NCBI GenBank assembly: GCA_030550025.1
Contig: JAUQQC010000008.1
Location: 1-49,200, forward strand
Length of the DNA stretch: 49,200 nucleotides
Reading direction: 5' to 3'
From: Acidobacteriota bacterium
GTDB taxonomy: Bacteria > Acidobacteriota > Blastocatellia > HR10
The position numbers were made by a program, and so were the translations under genes. Shown here in pieces: positions 2,119 through 48,511 of the stretch (its first letter is position 1; each line of letters begins with the position of its first letter). The notes below the pieces were generated by a model. The model made no database searches. It worked only from the letters and a program-made list of their open reading frames with translations, and was not told where the DNA came from.

Positions 2119-3303
2119 TCAGAATCCCGATCCCGGGCGCGAGACGGAATAGACGCTGGGAATCTCCGGACCAACGATCTCCGGCGGAACAGGGGTCATC
2201 GGCATGAGTTGCCCTAACCCGCTCGGCGCCAACGGGACGATTAATGAGGTCGTCGAGAGCGGCCGGAAGATCGGGCCTTCGATCACGCGCATCGGCTTCG
2301 GCGTCGGGCTCAATGCGCGCACCAGATCGAGAGCCGAAGCCGTCCCTTCAACCGCTGAGGCGGTGACGGCACGACACCGATTCACGGGCTCCACGACGAT
2401 GCCCGCGCGCCGCAAGAGCCGCACGAGATCCCCTTCGCAAATGGGCGCCAAGGGCGTCCATCCGTACTCCGGGCGCGCATTCCACCGTTCCAGCTCGGCG
2501 AGCGCGGCCGCCAGAGTCCATCCCTGGGCGGGAGCCGTGAGGCCGGAGATCCTCACCAAGAGCATGGCGAGCATCGCCTGTGTCAGGCGATCGCGCCGCT
2601 CAAAAAGAAGCGCGCGCGCGCGCGCGACATCAACCGGAAGCTCGCCGATTTCCGGCAGCACCCGCGCAGTGGAGGAGACCGGCCAGCCGGCTTGTGAAAG
2701 AACATCCCACATCTTGCGCTCGGTCATCCATTCATCGAGCGCCCATCCTTCAGCTGGAGCGAGACCTCGCGCATGAAGCCAAGCGGCCGCCTCCTCGGGC
2801 GTGAAAGCCCGATTGGGCGCAAGTACGCGCGCAAGCAGCTGCGCGAACTGCCCTTGGGTGATCGGCATCCCGTCGCGAAAGATCGCGCGCGCGCGAGCTC
2901 GGGTGATGCCCCCTTGTCCCGGTTGCGCCGCCGGATGCGCGGCGAAGCGTGTCCCCCGAAGCATCGGCGCCAGATCGTCCTCGCGCAATGGAGCTTCAAG
3001 TCGCCATCCCTCCTTGGGACGACGCCCCAAACGCTCCAATTCGCGCGCCGCACGCTCGGCCGTCCACCCCTCCGGCGGTTCGGCCAAGCCTAAAGCCCAC
3101 GCCAGAAGGATCGCCCACTCCCCTTGCGGGATCTCCGCGCAGCACTCGTCCTCGGCCAGAACAACCGGCTCAGCGCCTCCCCCCGAACGCTCCGCCAGCG
3201 GCTTCGGGATCGAAGGCTGAATGACGATGGCCGAGAGAAATGCCACGGCTACGAAAGCCCCTCCGAACAGTGCCTTCCTTTTGCGAGCGCTCATGGCGAT
3301 CAT
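2119..3303 (-). CDS. Secreted or membrane-anchored protein with three GW-type tandem repeats
   Basis: 394 residues from the ATG at 3303, which overlaps the kinase stop as ATGA and has AGGGAG six bases upstream; a second ATG three codons in is possible. Residues 10-30 form one hydrophobic segment, so the protein is exported or anchored. Three units of about 62-67 residues (58-121, 148-209, 239-305) share the pattern [IL]xQ..[WFL]A.LL..., then a W/FT.E.AA..L helix, then P.EGW, then an acidic E.D[LM]...L...G helix. A Pro-rich tail follows (331-394). The arrangement recalls S-layer homology modules but lacks their signature, so I do not assign it. It may be an envelope-binding partner of the co-polymerase encoded just upstream. 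Confidence 0.8.
   Translation of the reverse strand: MIAMSARKRKALFGGAFVAVAFLSAIVIQPSIPKPLAERSGGGAEPVVLAEDECCAEIPQGEWAILLAWALGLAEPPEGWTAERAARELERLGRRPKEGWRLEAPLREDDLAPMLRGTRFAAHPAAQPGQGGITRARARAIFRDGMPITQGQFAQLLARVLAPNRAFTPEEAAAWLHARGLAPAEGWALDEWMTERKMWDVLSQAGWPVSSTARVLPEIGELPVDVARARALLFERRDRLTQAMLAMLLVRISGLTAPAQGWTLAAALAELERWNARPEYGWTPLAPICEGDLVRLLRRAGIVVEPVNRCRAVTASAVEGTASALDLVRALSPTPKPMRVIEGPIFRPLSTTSLIVPLAPSGLGQLMPMTPVPPEIVGPEIPSVYSVSRPGSGF
2389..3132 (-). repeat. Three diverged protein repeats of about 65 residues
   Basis: Internal repeats encoded at residues 58-121, 148-209 and 239-305 of the secreted protein. Each opens with x-Q then an LL helix, has a central W/FT and EGW (or YGW) motif, and closes with an acidic helix ending in G or F. 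The units are too diverged at DNA level to recombine, which points to old duplication kept by selection. Confidence 0.7.
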
Positions 3304-5888
3304 CCTTCGCTCCCTCTGTGTTCCTGTCGTCGAGTGCTCCGAATCGCCTCCACCCCTCGACTCCATAAGGATCTCCTCGATGCCCCTTCCTCGCGCGGAC
3401 GATAGTAGTACTGCTCGTAGCGGCTCTCCTCGGGCCGAATATCGTTCAACACTACACCCCAGATGGGCGCATTCGCTCGGGCAAGCCGCTCGACGGCCCG
3501 CCGCACGACCTTGCGGTCCGTCCGATTGAATCGGACGACGATGAGAACCCCATCCACAACCGGAGCGATCACCATAGGATCGCTCACCGCGGCGACCGGC
3601 GGAGAATCGAGGATGACCCACTCAAACTGCGCCTTGAGCCCTCGAACCAGCTCACCCATGACCTCCCGGTCGAGCAACAGGAACGGATTCTGCGGCGGAC
3701 GCCCAGCGGGAAGAACATGCAAATTCGGAACGTCCGTCTCACAGATGAGCGCCGGAAGTTCCGCCTCGCCCGCCAGATAAGCCACAACGCCTTCGGCCTC
3801 CGACGAGGATGATCCCCCCTGCGGCGACGCCTCCTGTATCCTTCTCTGCAACGCGCGCTCGACGGCCACGCGCAAGGCCTCAAGCTCGAACGGCTTGGTG
3901 AGATAATCCGCCGCACCTCGACGCACCGCCTCAATGGCCGTCTCCAACGATGCGTGCCCGGTGACCAGCACAACTTCCGTGCGCGGACTCAGCCCCTTGA
4001 TGCGCTCCAGCAGCTCCGTGCCGTTCATCCCAGGAAGCTTGATGTCCACGATCGCGAGAGCGACGTCGTTGTCGCGGAGCTTCGCCAGCGCGTCCTGCCC
4101 GTCTTCCGCCACGAGAATCGGGCCAAGCGTCCACCCTCCTCCAAGCCCATCGCGCTGAAAGACGGCGAGCCCACTGGCGATCAAATTTCGCACCGCCGCC
4201 TCATCATCCACGACGAGGACGGCTCCAAGTTGCGAACCTCGACGCTTGAGTCGAGGAAACCGACGATGTATATCCGGACGGCGCAGATCGAAATCCACCA
4301 GGATCGTACGCGCGCCCAACCGGGCCGCCGTTCGCGCCAGCTCGCACGCGATCGTCGTCTTCCCTTCTTCCATCACCGAACTGGTGATCAACACGGCGCG
4401 CGAGGAGAGCCCCCGATGAAAGAGCTTGAGGTTCGTCCACAATCCGTGAAAAGCTTCGCGCCGAGCGAATTCCTCTACGGTGAGGGAACGCGGGACTTCT
4501 CCGAGCACGGGCTGCCCGAGCAGCCGTTCGATCTCCTCGGCATCCCGAATCGTGTTGTTCACGAAATCCCTGGCGACGACGATTCCTACGCCGAGCAGAA
4601 GTCCCCCGAACAACCCGAGCAACAGAACGCGCGGACTTTGACGATTGAGCGGAACCCGAGGGGGCACGGCGCGATCCACAAGTGCGACATTATTGCGAAG
4701 GAGCTGTCCCCCTAACTCCACGCGGTTCAACGTCTGCTTCAGCTCGCGCGCGATCTCCGAAACAACGGCCTGTTGCAAGATTTGGTCGAGAAGCCGCGGA
4801 TCGGTGCTGGCGCTCTGCACGCGCTGCTGTTCGAGATCGCGCGCGCGTCGGGCCTCCGCCTCTTTTTGACGGGCCACCTCCAGCTCGTTTCGGAGCGCTT
4901 CCAAAGCGACGTCGGTCGCTCGCGCGATCTGCTCTTCCAACGCGCTCAGCTGCGCACGGAGCTGAACGACGCGCGGATTCCGCTCCAAGAATCCCTTCTG
5001 TGCCAATTCGCGGAGCTCCCGCTCCAGCATCGCCTTTCGCTCCAAGAGTCCACCGAGTTCGTTCGGGCCAGTGAGCAAGGCAGCGATGCGATGAGGAGCC
5101 TCCCGCGCCGCCACGGCCTGCTGATACCGAGCTTCGACCCGCTGTCGCTCTCGTTGCGCCTCCAGGAGAGTCTGCGTCGCCACCTCCAGGGCGCTTGTGT
5201 CCACTCTCCCTCGAGCCGCTTCGGTCGGGATGAGGCCGAGCTCGCGAGCGACCTGCTGCAATTGCTCGATCACTCGCGCTTGATTCGCCTCAGCCCGCTC
5301 AAGCAAAGCTCTCAAGGCTACGATCGTCTCCTGGAAGCTCTTCTTCCGCTCCTCGAGGTTGCTCGCGACATACACCTCGGCGAGCGTATTCGCCCATAAC
5401 GCCGCTTCCTCGGGCGACTCACGCGTCACCGCAATGGCGATGATCCGCGTGTTCTCCACCTGACGCGGCGCGACCGAAGCTTGAAGCTCCGCGGCCAACT
5501 CCTCCCGATTCCGCCCCTGATACGGCGGCAGACGCATGAGCGCCTCGGCCGCACGCAACGCCAGCGTGCTGCCGGAGATGATGCGCAGTTGCGTTTGGAA
5601 GTAGTACTCGTAGTCGAAGTAGCTGTTGTACTGCGGAGTCATCACCGCTTGCGTCGGATCAATCGGCGCTGAAGGAAGCTCGACCGAGACCGTCGCCTGC
5701 GCCTGATAGAGCGGTGTGCGCAAAAACCCCGATAAGAAGGCAAGACCGAGACAAAGAAGCGCCGAGGCCAGAACCGTCCACTTGCCTCGACGAAGGAGGT
5801 CAAGGTAATAGCGGTAATCCACACCCGCGTTGAGACTTTCTATTCCCGACACATGGGGAATTGTATCAATGCCTCCAGGTGCGGGCAA
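3300..5888 (-). CDS. Wzz/BY-kinase (polysaccharide co-polymerase and tyrosine autokinase) with an internal receiver domain
   Basis: 862 residues. An N-terminal Wzz domain (about 23-115) has TM1 at 37-57; a long periplasmic coiled coil (180-395) is followed by a PxxP stretch (VPPRVPLNRQSP) and TM2 at 420-440. The bacterial tyrosine kinase follows: Walker A (SSVMEEGKTT, 503-512), Walker A' (VDFDLRRPD, 531-539) and Walker B (VILDSPP, 758-764), with a C-terminal Tyr cluster (YEQYYY, 824-829). Such proteins control export and chain length of capsule or exopolysaccharide. Uniquely, a complete CheY-like receiver (about 555-685; DD 561-562, D615, T643, K665) lies between Walker A' and Walker B, joined by a GGSSSS linker. 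The start is a TTG with GGAGG only 2-3 bases before it; a GTG twelve codons in is an alternative. Confidence 0.9.
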   Translation of the reverse strand: MPAPGGIDTIPHVSGIESLNAGVDYRYYLDLLRRGKWTVLASALLCLGLAFLSGFLRTPLYQAQATVSVELPSAPIDPTQAVMTPQYNSYFDYEYYFQTQLRIISGSTLALRAAEALMRLPPYQGRNREELAAELQASVAPRQVENTRIIAIAVTRESPEEAALWANTLAEVYVASNLEERKKSFQETIVALRALLERAEANQARVIEQLQQVARELGLIPTEAARGRVDTSALEVATQTLLEAQRERQRVEARYQQAVAAREAPHRIAALLTGPNELGGLLERKAMLERELRELAQKGFLERNPRVVQLRAQLSALEEQIARATDVALEALRNELEVARQKEAEARRARDLEQQRVQSASTDPRLLDQILQQAVVSEIARELKQTLNRVELGGQLLRNNVALVDRAVPPRVPLNRQSPRVLLLGLFGGLLLGVGIVVARDFVNNTIRDAEEIERLLGQPVLGEVPRSLTVEEFARREAFHGLWTNLKLFHRGLSSRAVLITSSVMEEGKTTIACELARTAARLGARTILVDFDLRRPDIHRRFPRLKRRGSQLGAVLVVDDEAAVRNLIASGLAVFQRDGLGGGWTLGPILVAEDGQDALAKLRDNDVALAIVDIKLPGMNGTELLERIKGLSPRTEVVLVTGHASLETAIEAVRRGAADYLTKPFELEALRVAVERALQRRIQEASPQGGSSSSEAEGVVAYLAGEAELPALICETDVPNLHVLPAGRPPQNPFLLLDREVMGELVRGLKAQFEWVILDSPPVAAVSDPMVIAPVVDGVLIVVRFNRTDRKVVRRAVERLARANAPIWGVVLNDIRPEESRYEQYYYRPREEGASRRSLWSRGVEAIRSTRRQEHRGSEG
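3791..4238 (-). other. CheY/NtrC-type receiver domain inserted in the BY-kinase domain
   Basis: Encodes residues about 551-700 of the kinase. All receiver landmarks are present: the acidic pair in VLVVDDE, the phospho-acceptor aspartate in AIVDIKLPG, the conserved T in VLVTGHAS and the lysine in YLTKPFE. The flanking halves (RRPDIHRRFP before, VVAYLAGE after) join up as a normal BY-kinase once the insert is removed. The frame is unbroken on both sides. The right junction is a Gly/Ser linker. Confidence 0.9.
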
Positions 5889-11272: not shown

Positions 11273-12556
11273 TCATGGGCGATCCGCGTGATAGACCACG
11301 CGACCGGCGACTAAGGTCGCCCGTACGGCCCCGGTGAGATGCCATCCCTCAAAGGGCGTATTGCGACCTTTCGAGCGAAACTGTTCGGACCGGACGATGA
11401 ACGGGCGCGTCGGATCCAAGATAGTGATGTCGGCGACGGCACCCGGTTTCAGTGTCCCTCCCGGGAGATTCGCGATGCGGGCGGGATTCGTCGAGAAGAG
11501 TTCGACCAAGCGCATCCATCCGATGAGGCCTTGATGCACGAGGCGATCCAGGGCGAGACTGACGGCCGTCTCCAAACCCACGATGCCGAAGGGCGCGCGC
11601 TCGAACTCGAGCGCCTTTTCATCGGGATGATGCGGGGCATGATCCGTTGCGATGGCGTCAATCGTTCCGTCAACGAGGGCCTCATGGATCGCTCGGATGT
11701 CCCGTTCCGTTCGCAGCGGGGGGTTCACCTTGGCGTTAGTATCGTAGTCGCGGACCGCTTCTTCCGTGAGGGTGAAGTGATGCGGCGTGACTTCGCAACT
11801 GACCCGCACGCCGCGACGTTTCGCTTGGCGCACCAACTCGATTGAGAAGGCCGTGCTCACATGGGCCAGATGCACGTGAGCGCCGGTCAGCTCGGCCAGG
11901 ATGATATCTCGCGCCACGTGTACTTCCTCGGCTGCCGCTGGGATGCCCTTCAACCCAAGGCGTAGCGACCACAAGCCTTCGTTCATGACCCCTCCGGCCG
12001 AGAGAGATTTATCCTCACAATGATCAATCACGGGAATGTCCAATTGCCGGGCATATTCCATGGCGCGGCGCATGATCTGAGCATTCATGACGGGTTGACC
12101 ATCGTCGCTGATGGCGATGATACCGGCTTCTCGCATTTCACCGATCTCGGCCAGGGCCTCTCCGCTCAATCCTTGCGTGATCGCGCCGATGGGATAGACG
12201 CGCACGGCGCCGACCTCGCGAGCGCGCTCGAGGATGAAGCGCGTCACGGCCCGATTATCGTTGACCGGCTGCGTGTTGGGCATGGCGCAGACGGCCGTGA
12301 ACCCCCCGGCGGCAGCCGCGTGCGTACCCGTCTCGATGGTCTCGACGTCCTCGCGGCCGGGCTCGCGCAAGTGAACGTGAAGATCAATGAATCCCGGAGC
12401 AACGATGCACCCGCGCACATCAAGGACCTGGGCCTCAGGAACTGAGATCTCCGGAGCGATCTCCCGGATGATCCCATCCTCGACGAGGAGATCTCCTTTC
12501 ATCTCTAACCGTTCGGAGGGATCCACGATGGTCCCCGACTTGATCAGCACGCGCAT
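11273..12556 (-). CDS. pyrC: Dihydroorotase
   Basis: 427 residues, class I amidohydrolase. It closes N-carbamoyl-aspartate to dihydroorotate, third step of pyrimidine synthesis, in the cytoplasm. Metal ligands are visible in [10 protein letters not shown] (about 58-67), CEVTPHH in the middle, and ATDHAPHH near 305. It is transcribed alone, divergent from the yceD-rpmF operon. The mRNA looks leaderless: the -10 ends ten bases before the ATG and there is no ribosome site. pyrR and pyrB lie about 20 kb away in the same window. Confidence 0.96.
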
Positions 12557-47113: not shown

Positions 47114-48511
47114 TCATCCTGCGCCATGCGCGCGAGAGGCGGAGACGGCACGCCCGATCCCCATATACGTGAATCCCGCCCGACGCGCGTGCTCGGGATC
47201 AAAGAGATTGCGCCCGTCCAGCAGAAGATCGCCCCGCATGACGCGCCGAAGCGCGGCGAGATCAAGGTGGCGAAATTCCTCCCATTCGGTGACGAGGACG
47301 AGCGCATCGCACTCGCGAGCGAGGTCTATCGGATCGACCGCGTAGGAGAGCGCGAGATCGGGATGCTCCGCCTTCGCGTTCTCCATGGCGACAGGATCAT
47401 AGACTTTCACCCGCGCGCCCGCATCTTGCAACGCCCGTGCAATCGCCATGCTCGGAGCATCACGGATATCGTCCGTGTTTGGCTTGAAGGCCAAGCCTAA
47501 CAACCCGATCGTACGTCCCTCCAGGGATCCGAGGGCGGCGCGGAGTTTCTCGATCACAATGCGACGCTGAGCGACGTTCGTCGCGTAAGCCGCACGAAGT
47601 AAGGCCGGATCATACCCGATATGTTCGGCTAATCGAATCAAGGCCAGGAGATCCTTCCCCAAGCAGCTCCCCCCCCATCCGATCCCCGCCCGCAGGTAGT
47701 GCGGGCCAATGCGATGATCCAATCCCACGGCCTCCATGACTCGCAGCACATCGGCGCCGACGCGCTCGCAGATGTTGGCGATCTCATTGGCGAAACTGAT
47801 CTTCAGGGCGAGAAATGCATTCGAGGCGTACTTGGCCATCTCGGCGCTGTCCCAGTCCATCCACAGCAGCGGCACATGCCGCAGTCCATCAGGACGAGGG
47901 GGGATATAGTCCGGCGTCGGGAACGTTTGCTCTAGGATTGGACGATAGAGCTGGTGCACTAAGGGGACAGCTCTCGCATCCTCCGCGCCGACAATGATCC
48001 GATCCGGGTACAAGCAATCGTGCACCGCATTCCCCTCGCGCAAGAATTCCGGGTTGCTCACGACGAGCACCTGGCTCCCGAGAGAGGAGGTCCGAAACCA
48101 CTCGGCCATCCATCGGGCTGTCCCGACGGGGACCGTAGATTTACTCACGACGAGGCGCATCGTGCGTTCGGCCACTCGCTCGAACGCGCGTTTGAGCGTT
48201 TGCAGGACAGCCTCAATGTGGCGAAGATCCACATGCCCATCCACACGCGGTGGGGTGCCCACAGCGATCAAAACCGCATCGGCCTCTACGATTGCCGATT
48301 CCACGTCCTCCGAGAACGCGAGCCTTCCTGCAGCCATTTGAACGCGCAAGAGGCGTTCCAAACCGGGTTCGTAAATGGGCGAGAGACCTTCCCGTAACCG
48401 CGCGATTTTGCGCCGATTCACATCCACGCCCACGACGAGATGCCCGATGTGACTCAGACAAGCGGCCGTGACTAACCCGACATATCCTGTCCCGATGACG
48501 CAGATGCGCAT
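47114..48511 (-). CDS. UDP-glucose 6-dehydrogenase
   Basis: 465 residues. NAD site VIGTGYVGLV (5-14), the SKSTVPVGT loop (123-131), and catalytic C283 in GGSCLGKD (usually GGSCFPKD). It oxidises UDP-glucose twice to UDP-glucuronate, a precursor of acidic polysaccharides and glycolipids. An extra loop of about 15 residues (about 198-215) precedes the SAEMAKYASNAF helix compared with short members. It is the first gene of the minus-strand operon. Confidence 0.94.
   Translation of the reverse strand: MRICVIGTGYVGLVTAACLSHIGHLVVGVDVNRRKIARLREGLSPIYEPGLERLLRVQMAAGRLAFSEDVESAIVEADAVLIAVGTPPRVDGHVDLRHIEAVLQTLKRAFERVAERTMRLVVSKSTVPVGTARWMAEWFRTSSLGSQVLVVSNPEFLREGNAVHDCLYPDRIIVGAEDARAVPLVHQLYRPILEQTFPTPDYIPPRPDGLRHVPLLWMDWDSAEMAKYASNAFLALKISFANEIANICERVGADVLRVMEAVGLDHRIGPHYLRAGIGWGGSCLGKDLLALIRLAEHIGYDPALLRAAYATNVAQRRIVIEKLRAALGSLEGRTIGLLGLAFKPNTDDIRDAPSMAIARALQDAGARVKVYDPVAMENAKAEHPDLALSYAVDPIDLARECDALVLVTEWEEFRHLDLAALRRVMRGDLLLDGRNLFDPEHARRAGFTYMGIGRAVSASRAHGAG

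What the first reader, a model, noticed from the sequence alone, without database searches (positions are those of the whole stretch)
3300..5888. BY-kinase with a complete receiver domain spliced between Walker A' and Walker B
Seen: one unbroken frame holds Wzz, coiled coil, Walker A, Walker A', then a full receiver (DD, D615, T643, K665), a GGSSSS linker, and then the rest of the kinase including Walker B and the Tyr cluster. Known: BY-kinases and receivers are normally separate proteins. Inference: a histidine kinase could switch polysaccharide export by phosphorylating D615 and moving the two halves of the ATP site. This would couple His-Asp and Tyr phosphorylation in one chain.
Basis: partly seen in the sequence, partly recalled or inferred. 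Interest (0 to 1): 0.92.

Follow-up and report, generated by a model that had tools for sequence, protein, structure and literature searches.

The report
Capsule tyrosine kinase with inserted receiver
In one family of Blastocatellia bacteria, the enzyme thought to drive export of a surface sugar coat (a bacterial tyrosine kinase) carries a complete two-component "receiver" switch built into the middle of its catalytic domain, so two signalling chemistries that are normally in separate proteins meet in one molecule.

Summary
One 862-aa frame (window 3300-5888, minus strand) holds a Wzz/PCP-2 membrane part. Its BY-kinase domain is split by a complete receiver (REC) between Walker A' and Walker B. 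The same architecture occurs in four MAGs of one Blastocatellia family (89%, 80% and 57% identical). All REC phosphorylation residues and all Walker residues are kept; REC and kinase are under similar purifying selection. A structure model gives a BY-kinase fold (VpsO Z 25) around a REC (NtrX Z 21). Nineteen ordinary BY-kinases of the class have no insert. No other case appeared among about 1,200 genomes or 72,556 plasmids, and no paper found describes one. In all four fusions the EX2RX2R octamer-interface motif is EX2HX2W. A coupled three-repeat protein follows. Fusion, partner and an unlinked β-barrel gene (next to GT4 and OPX genes) occur in the same four genomes; a fifth genome of the genus lacks all three, with a clean deletion at this locus. 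Most likely it is the PCP/BY-kinase of a composite OPX/β-barrel exporter whose assembly or kinase activity is set by aspartate phosphorylation of the REC. Phosphotransfer and the switch are inferred, not shown.

The parts
3300..5888 (-). PCP-2/BY-kinase with internal receiver domain, 862 aa, TTG start
   Evidence: orthologues
5577..5807 (-). Wzz domain, residues 28-104, including TM1 (37-55)
   Evidence: Pfam PF02706 E 8.9e-8; hydrophobic stretch read from sequence
4572..4667 (-). PCP-type PX2PX4SPR motif (within 408-420) and TM2 (421-439)
   Evidence: read from sequence; same in the G005 orthologue (PX2PX4SPK)
4437..4457 (-). Altered octamer-interface motif, residues 478-484 EAFHGLW (canonical EX2RX2R)
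4353..4382 (-). Walker A, residues 503-512 SSVMEEGKTT
4275..4304 (-). Walker A', residues 529-538 ILVDFDLRRP
3840..4223 (-). Inserted receiver domain, residues 556-683
   Evidence: Pfam PF00072 557-676 E 2.8e-23; model pLDDT mostly 80-96 and NtrX match Z 20.9
4044..4046 (-). Predicted phosphoacceptor D615 (with D561/D562, T643, K665 invariant in 4 of 4)
3792..3839 (-). Fast-evolving linker back into the kinase, residues 684-699
   Evidence: linker (683-697) identity 7-47% between orthologues
3438..3791 (-). Second half of the BY-kinase domain, residues 700-817, with Walker B 757-765 WVILDSPPV (3594-3620)
3390..3425 (-). C-terminal Tyr cluster, residues 822-833 SRYEQYYYRPRE
2119..3303 (-). Coupled partner gene, 394 aa from the ATG that overlaps the fusion's stop codon (ATGA), or 391 aa from ATG 3294; N-terminal hydrophobic segment and three tandem ~60-aa repeats; no Pfam or NCBIfam match
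   Evidence: adjacent in all four fusion genomes

Best explanation
The gene encodes the inner-membrane co-polymerase/tyrosine kinase (PCP-2a, Wzc type) of a second polysaccharide export system. That system's composite outer-membrane channel (OPX plus beta-barrel, next to a WecA-like GT4) is encoded elsewhere in the genome. A receiver related to the N-terminal REC of a REC-GAF-(PAS)-HisKA-HATPase-REC hybrid kinase sits in the loop after Walker A', between the HRRF helix and the GLS/Y helix. Proposed action: a histidine kinase phosphorylates D615; the phospho-receiver changes packing next to Walker A' and/or pairs with the receivers of neighbouring subunits. This controls ring assembly and therefore trans-autophosphorylation and export. 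Shown here: architecture, conservation of all phosphorylation and catalytic residues, purifying selection, foldability in a model, loss of the usual ring-contact arginines, overlap with the partner gene, and co-occurrence with the beta-barrel export gene. Inferred: phosphotransfer, direction of control, and that the receiver replaces the lost ring contacts.
For: Same architecture in four MAGs of two genera. DD, D, T, K and Walker A/A'/B residues invariant in A1. REC dN/dS 0.165 against 0.13-0.20 for the kinase halves in G000/G002 and G000/G003; linker free. Two-half kinase fold aligns over 202 residues to VpsO, Z 25.4, and REC over 117 residues to NtrX, Z 20.9. EX2RX2R becomes EX2HX2W in 4 of 4 fusions but is kept in 19 of 19 ordinary kinases; that motif makes half of the octamer interface and is needed for trans-autophosphorylation and polymer synthesis (PMC3795738). 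G001 has lost fusion plus partner in one deletion and lacks the beta-barrel; the GT4-barrel-OPX trio is intact in G000, G002, G003 and G005. Short OPX plus beta-barrel is an established composite translocon (PMC9601211). A phosphorylated single-domain receiver, EpsW, is already known to switch on EPS synthesis, with dimerisation of the initiating transferase as the proposed mechanism (PMC12802240).
Against: No biochemical data. No histidine kinase was recognised beside the gene in any of the four genomes. The hybrid kinase with the sister REC is missing from G005, which has the fusion, so it cannot be the only phosphodonor. The Tyr tail is short and fast-evolving (3 to about 8 Tyr). 15 of 58 positions near-invariant in ordinary kinases are changed, so kinase activity may be altered or lost. 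Co-occurrence rests on few genomes, and the two of the genus that lack everything are 87% and 73% complete MAGs.
Confidence: 0.58

Rival explanations
1. Intramolecular hinge: phosphorylation of D615 shifts the two halves of the ATP site relative to each other inside one subunit, switching catalysis on or off without using oligomerisation.
For: The receiver starts 20 residues after the Walker A' Arg (R536), so it is close in sequence to the nucleotide site. Wzc switches between open and closed states through Walker A/B contacts (PMC8517177).
Against: The exit linker is unconserved and of low model confidence, which couples a hinge poorly. In Wzc the closed, ATP-competent state is stabilised by ring formation, so hinge and ring are not independent.
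Confidence: 0.2
2. His-Asp phosphorylation has replaced Tyr autophosphorylation: the kinase is a weak enzyme or scaffold, and the receiver alone sets assembly and disassembly of the co-polymerase.
For: Loss of EX2RX2R and 13 other near-invariant kinase positions, including the Asn after GKTTxxx; very long branch of the fused kinases; fast Tyr tail. BY pseudokinases proposed to work as scaffolds exist (EcpK, PMC12004946).
Against: Walker A Lys/Thr, DxDxR and the Walker B Asp are invariant in all four, unlike EcpK, which lacks all three motifs. Every orthologue keeps at least three tail tyrosines.
Confidence: 0.2
3. The receiver is a phosphorylation-independent docking module or passive spacer, kept for protein contacts only.
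For: Receivers can act without phosphorylation (general knowledge); no cognate kinase was recognised nearby.
Against: All five residues of the phosphorylation site are invariant across four orthologues at 51-88% receiver identity, under dN/dS about 0.17-0.35; atypical receivers usually lose some of them (general knowledge).
Confidence: 0.12
4. Assembly chimera, or a broken kinase with a recent accidental insertion.
For: None found.
Against: Four MAGs in two genera share it, at the same locus next to the same MR_MLE-family gene, in an open frame under purifying selection.
Confidence: 0.01

Closest known systems
PCP-2a / BY-kinases: Wzc and Etk (E. coli), VpsO, BceF, CapA-CapB (TIGR01007)
   Same: Wzz periplasmic part, two TMs, proline motif, MinD-like kinase fold with Walker A, A', B and a C-terminal Tyr cluster; structural Z 21-25 to VpsO, Wzc, CapB, Etk and BceF
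   Different: A whole receiver sits between Walker A' and B; EX2RX2R is EX2HX2W; several other near-invariant positions are changed
NtrC/NtrX-class receiver domains, and the N-terminal REC of REC-GAF-(PAS)-HisKA-HATPase-REC hybrid kinases
   Same: Full five-residue phosphorylation site; fold match to the NtrX receiver at 1.1 A over 117 residues; one clade with the N-REC of the genus's own hybrid kinase (100/86), with the nearest outgroup REC also at the N-terminus of such a kinase
   Different: Inserted inside another enzyme's catalytic domain instead of standing at a terminus
CpaE/TadZ-type proteins (receiver-like domain plus MinD-like ATPase)
   Same: A receiver-type domain and a MinD-family ATPase in one chain (from general knowledge, not tested here)
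   Different: There the receiver-like domain is N-terminal and usually atypical; pilus assembly, not a tyrosine kinase
EpsW-EpsZ (M. xanthus) and receiver-containing small monoPGTs
   Same: Receivers act on, or are fused to, the polysaccharide machinery post-translationally (PMC12802240)
   Different: Acts on the initiating transferase, not inside the BY-kinase
Composite OPX/beta-barrel translocons (EpsX/EpsY, Wzp)
   Same: Short OPX (303 aa, ending after SLBB) next to an outer-membrane barrel gene, in the same genomes as the fusion
   Different: The co-polymerase is encoded at a different locus

Membership tests
BY-kinase / PCP-2a | Family profile over its curated cut-off | tested here: met
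   TIGR01007 135.3 bits against cut-off 108.05
BY-kinase / PCP-2a | Walker A, Walker A' (DxDxR) and Walker B residues | tested here: met
   GKT, DxDLR, DSPP invariant in 4 of 4
BY-kinase / PCP-2a | C-terminal Tyr cluster | tested here: met
   Present in all four, 3 to about 8 Tyr
BY-kinase / PCP-2a | Wzz domain, two TMs, PX2PX4SPK-type motif | tested here: met
   Wzz over cut-off; motif and TMs read from sequence
BY-kinase / PCP-2a | EX2RX2R oligomer-interface motif | tested here: not met
   EX2HX2W in 4 of 4; canonical in 19 of 19 ordinary relatives. It is an interface motif, not a catalytic one, so the protein is filed as a variant, not as a typical member
BY-kinase / PCP-2a | Kinase fold | tested here: met
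   Z 25.4 to VpsO over 202 residues; model pLDDT 70.5 overall, kinase core about 70-91. The alignment given to AlphaFold2 held three BY-kinases
BY-kinase / PCP-2a | Tyrosine autophosphorylation | not testable with these tools
   Needs a bench assay
Response-regulator receiver | Full-length PF00072 with DD, D, T/S, K | tested here: met
   557-676, profile 1-110 of 111, E 2.8e-23; residues invariant
Response-regulator receiver | Phosphorylation by a histidine kinase | not testable with these tools
   Needs a bench assay
Composite OPX/beta-barrel export system (for the C24 genes) | Short OPX next to an outer-membrane beta-barrel | tested here: inconclusive
   OPX clear (PF02563 E 3.7e-23, 303 aa). 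Barrel only weakly recognised (BBP2_2 E about 5e-4 to 2e-3, under cut-off)

The most novel reading that the evidence does not exclude
A bacterial tyrosine kinase gated by two-component signalling within its own catalytic domain: aspartate phosphorylation of an inserted receiver takes over from the canonical EX2RX2R ring contacts, so that a histidine kinase directly decides when the polysaccharide co-polymerase ring assembles and autophosphorylates.
Probability: 0.4. Interest if true: 0.88.

Novelty: new variant of a known kind. Interest (0 to 1): 0.78.

Why it matters
What signal starts and stops the BY-kinase phosphorylation cycle in polysaccharide export is poorly known. Here the answer may be written into the protein: an environmental sensor could act directly on the exporter. 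It makes a direct test possible: phosphorylate one aspartate and watch ring assembly, tyrosine phosphorylation and export. It is also a natural example of a regulatory domain inserted into a P-loop kinase while its catalytic residues are kept.

Tried and rejected
Assembly join: rejected by four genomes. First AlphaFold2 model with five sequences: mean pLDDT 50.8, receiver under 50, not used; alignments mixing many receivers with kinases misaligned the kinase halves. I first called the 468-aa C24 protein a Wza; it is the beta-barrel and the OPX is the next gene. Hybrid kinase as the sole partner: rejected as general because G005 lacks it. Search for the same fusion elsewhere with the A1 profile: none more in 396 genomes of the window's phylum, 284 of the phylum of L048's genome (Myxococcota), 398 of the phylum of L046's genome (a betaproteobacterium) or 32 assorted; no plasmid with 80% cover. 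These are samples at strict E-values and do not exclude distant fusions. Whether fused receivers form one clade against the hybrid-kinase receivers is undecided (p-AU 0.25). Papers: no report of a BY-kinase with an internal receiver in the held open-access library; subscription papers and domain-architecture databases could not be searched.
Full report
OBSERVATION. The minus-strand frame at 3300-5888 is open for 862 codons from a TTG with a GGAGG ribosome site just upstream. Pfam, NCBIfam and PDB sequence searches agree on the order: Wzz (28-104), GNVR-type region, first half of a BY-kinase up to about residue 545, a complete response-regulator receiver (557-676, E 2.8e-23), then the second half of the kinase from about 697 to 830. 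TIGR01007 (polysaccharide tyrosine autokinase) passes its cut-off.

NOT AN ARTEFACT. The same full-length protein occurs in G002 (89%; record CALHAI010000004.1, uncultured Blastocatellia), G003 (80%) and G005, another genus of the family (57%). In an alignment of the four cytoplasmic parts the receiver's DD, D, T and K and the kinase's Walker A, A' and B residues are all invariant. dN/dS in the receiver is 0.165 for G000/G002 and G000/G003, against 0.13-0.20 for the kinase halves; the linker after the receiver evolves freely. In about 25 ordinary BY-kinases of the same class the distance from Walker A' to Walker B is 75-80 residues without exception; in three fusions it is 221-224, and about 228 in G005 by alignment.

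STRUCTURE. An AlphaFold2 model of residues 441-862 (11 sequences in the alignment; mean pLDDT 70.5, receiver mostly 80-96, kinase core about 70-91) aligns across the insert to VpsO (Z 25.4, 202 residues), Wzc, CapB, Etk and BceF. The receiver aligns to the NtrX receiver (Z 20.9, 1.1 A over 117 residues). The alignment supplied contained BY-kinases with a gap, so the kinase match is not wholly independent. The insert lies in the loop between the helix after Walker A' (HRRF) and the GLS/Y helix (GVVAYL).

WHAT IS CHANGED IN THE KINASE. Of 58 positions conserved in at least 18 of 19 ordinary class members, 34 are kept in all four fusions and 15 are changed in all four. Both arginines of EX2RX2R are among the changed ones (His and Trp instead). 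In known BY-kinases that motif makes half of the octamer interface and is essential for trans-autophosphorylation and polysaccharide synthesis (PMC3795738), and ring formation stabilises the ATP-competent state (PMC8517177). The inserted receiver may therefore supply or control the ring contact; this is inference.

GENETIC CONTEXT. The fusion's stop codon overlaps an ATG that opens a 394-aa gene (ATGA), so the two may be translationally coupled. That protein has an N-terminal hydrophobic segment and three tandem repeats of about 60 aa (shuffle z 7-15) and no Pfam or NCBIfam match. It is beside the fusion in all four genomes and absent from four relatives of the order. In G001, same genus, the flanks are syntenic at about 80-83% DNA identity, but fusion and partner are removed by one deletion (window about 2157-5851) that leaves a 46-codon remnant of the partner.

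EXPORT PARTNERS. The genome holds two OPX genes. One stands beside the ordinary BY-kinase on contig C29, with polysaccharide synthesis genes. The other is on C24 in the order WecA-like GT4, outer-membrane beta-barrel, 303-aa OPX, without a co-polymerase. The trio is intact in all four fusion genomes. The barrel gene is found only in those four and not in G001, G004 or four order relatives; in G001 the GT4 gene is kept but neither barrel nor OPX is found after it before the contig ends 347 bases on. Short OPX plus barrel matches the composite translocon described in PMC9601211. Hence the fusion is best read as the missing co-polymerase of the C24 exporter. The caveat is that G001 and G004 are 87% and 73% complete.

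ORIGIN OF THE RECEIVER. The four fused receivers and the N-terminal receivers of one REC-GAF-PAS-HisKA-HATPase-REC hybrid kinase (G000:C10:71095-73464 and its orthologues in G002 and G003) form one clade (100/86). The nearest outgroup, from another phylum, is again the N-terminal receiver of such a hybrid kinase. The receiver was therefore probably captured from a hybrid kinase; the exact branching is unresolved. That kinase is a candidate phosphodonor, but G005 has the fusion without it.

DISTRIBUTION AND NOVELTY. The A1 profile rings at 1e-200 or better in the four fusion genomes, and no other fusion appears in the 396-genome phylum sample, 284 and 398 genomes of two other phyla, or 32 assorted genomes; no plasmid covers the junction. 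The held open-access literature describes no BY-kinase with an internal receiver. It does describe receiver control of EPS synthesis at the initiating transferase by EpsW, and notes receiver domains in small monoPGTs (PMC12802240). I file this as a new variant of the BY-kinase/PCP-2a family.

VERDICT. Architecture, conservation and export association are well supported. Phosphotransfer to D615 and what it does to the kinase or ring are inference. I favour a phospho-receiver switch of ring assembly and autokinase activity (about 0.58), with an intramolecular hinge, replacement of Tyr phosphorylation by Asp phosphorylation, and passive docking as rivals.

Noticed in passing
window 2119-3303 (-): 394-aa protein with an N-terminal hydrophobic segment and three tandem ~60-aa repeats, no known family, strictly co-occurring with the fusion.
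   Followed up: partly
L146 (G001:C6:68000-85488), about 11414-11562: Clean deletion of the fusion and its partner between conserved flanks in a member of the same genus, leaving a 46-codon 3' remnant of the partner.
   Followed up: yes
L145 6689-10206 (G000:C24): GT4/WecA-like, outer-membrane beta-barrel and short OPX genes without a co-polymerase; two neighbouring genes on the other strand look PqqD-like and HPr-kinase-like (by eye) and are not found at this place in G001.
   Followed up: partly
L111 5096-7465 (G000:C10): Hybrid histidine kinase REC-GAF-PAS-HisKA-HATPase-REC whose N-terminal receiver is the closest relative of the inserted one; the next gene is a 1064-aa HEAT-repeat protein.
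   Followed up: partly
window 47114-48511 (-): UDP-glucose/nucleotide-sugar dehydrogenase; enzymes of this family are known BY-kinase substrates in other bacteria, so it is a candidate substrate.
   Followed up: no
window 4119-4151 (residues 580-590) and the hybrid-kinase N-terminal receivers: Receivers of this clade share a lengthened alpha1-beta2 loop of roughly ten residues compared with other NtrC-class receivers in the alignments.
   Followed up: no
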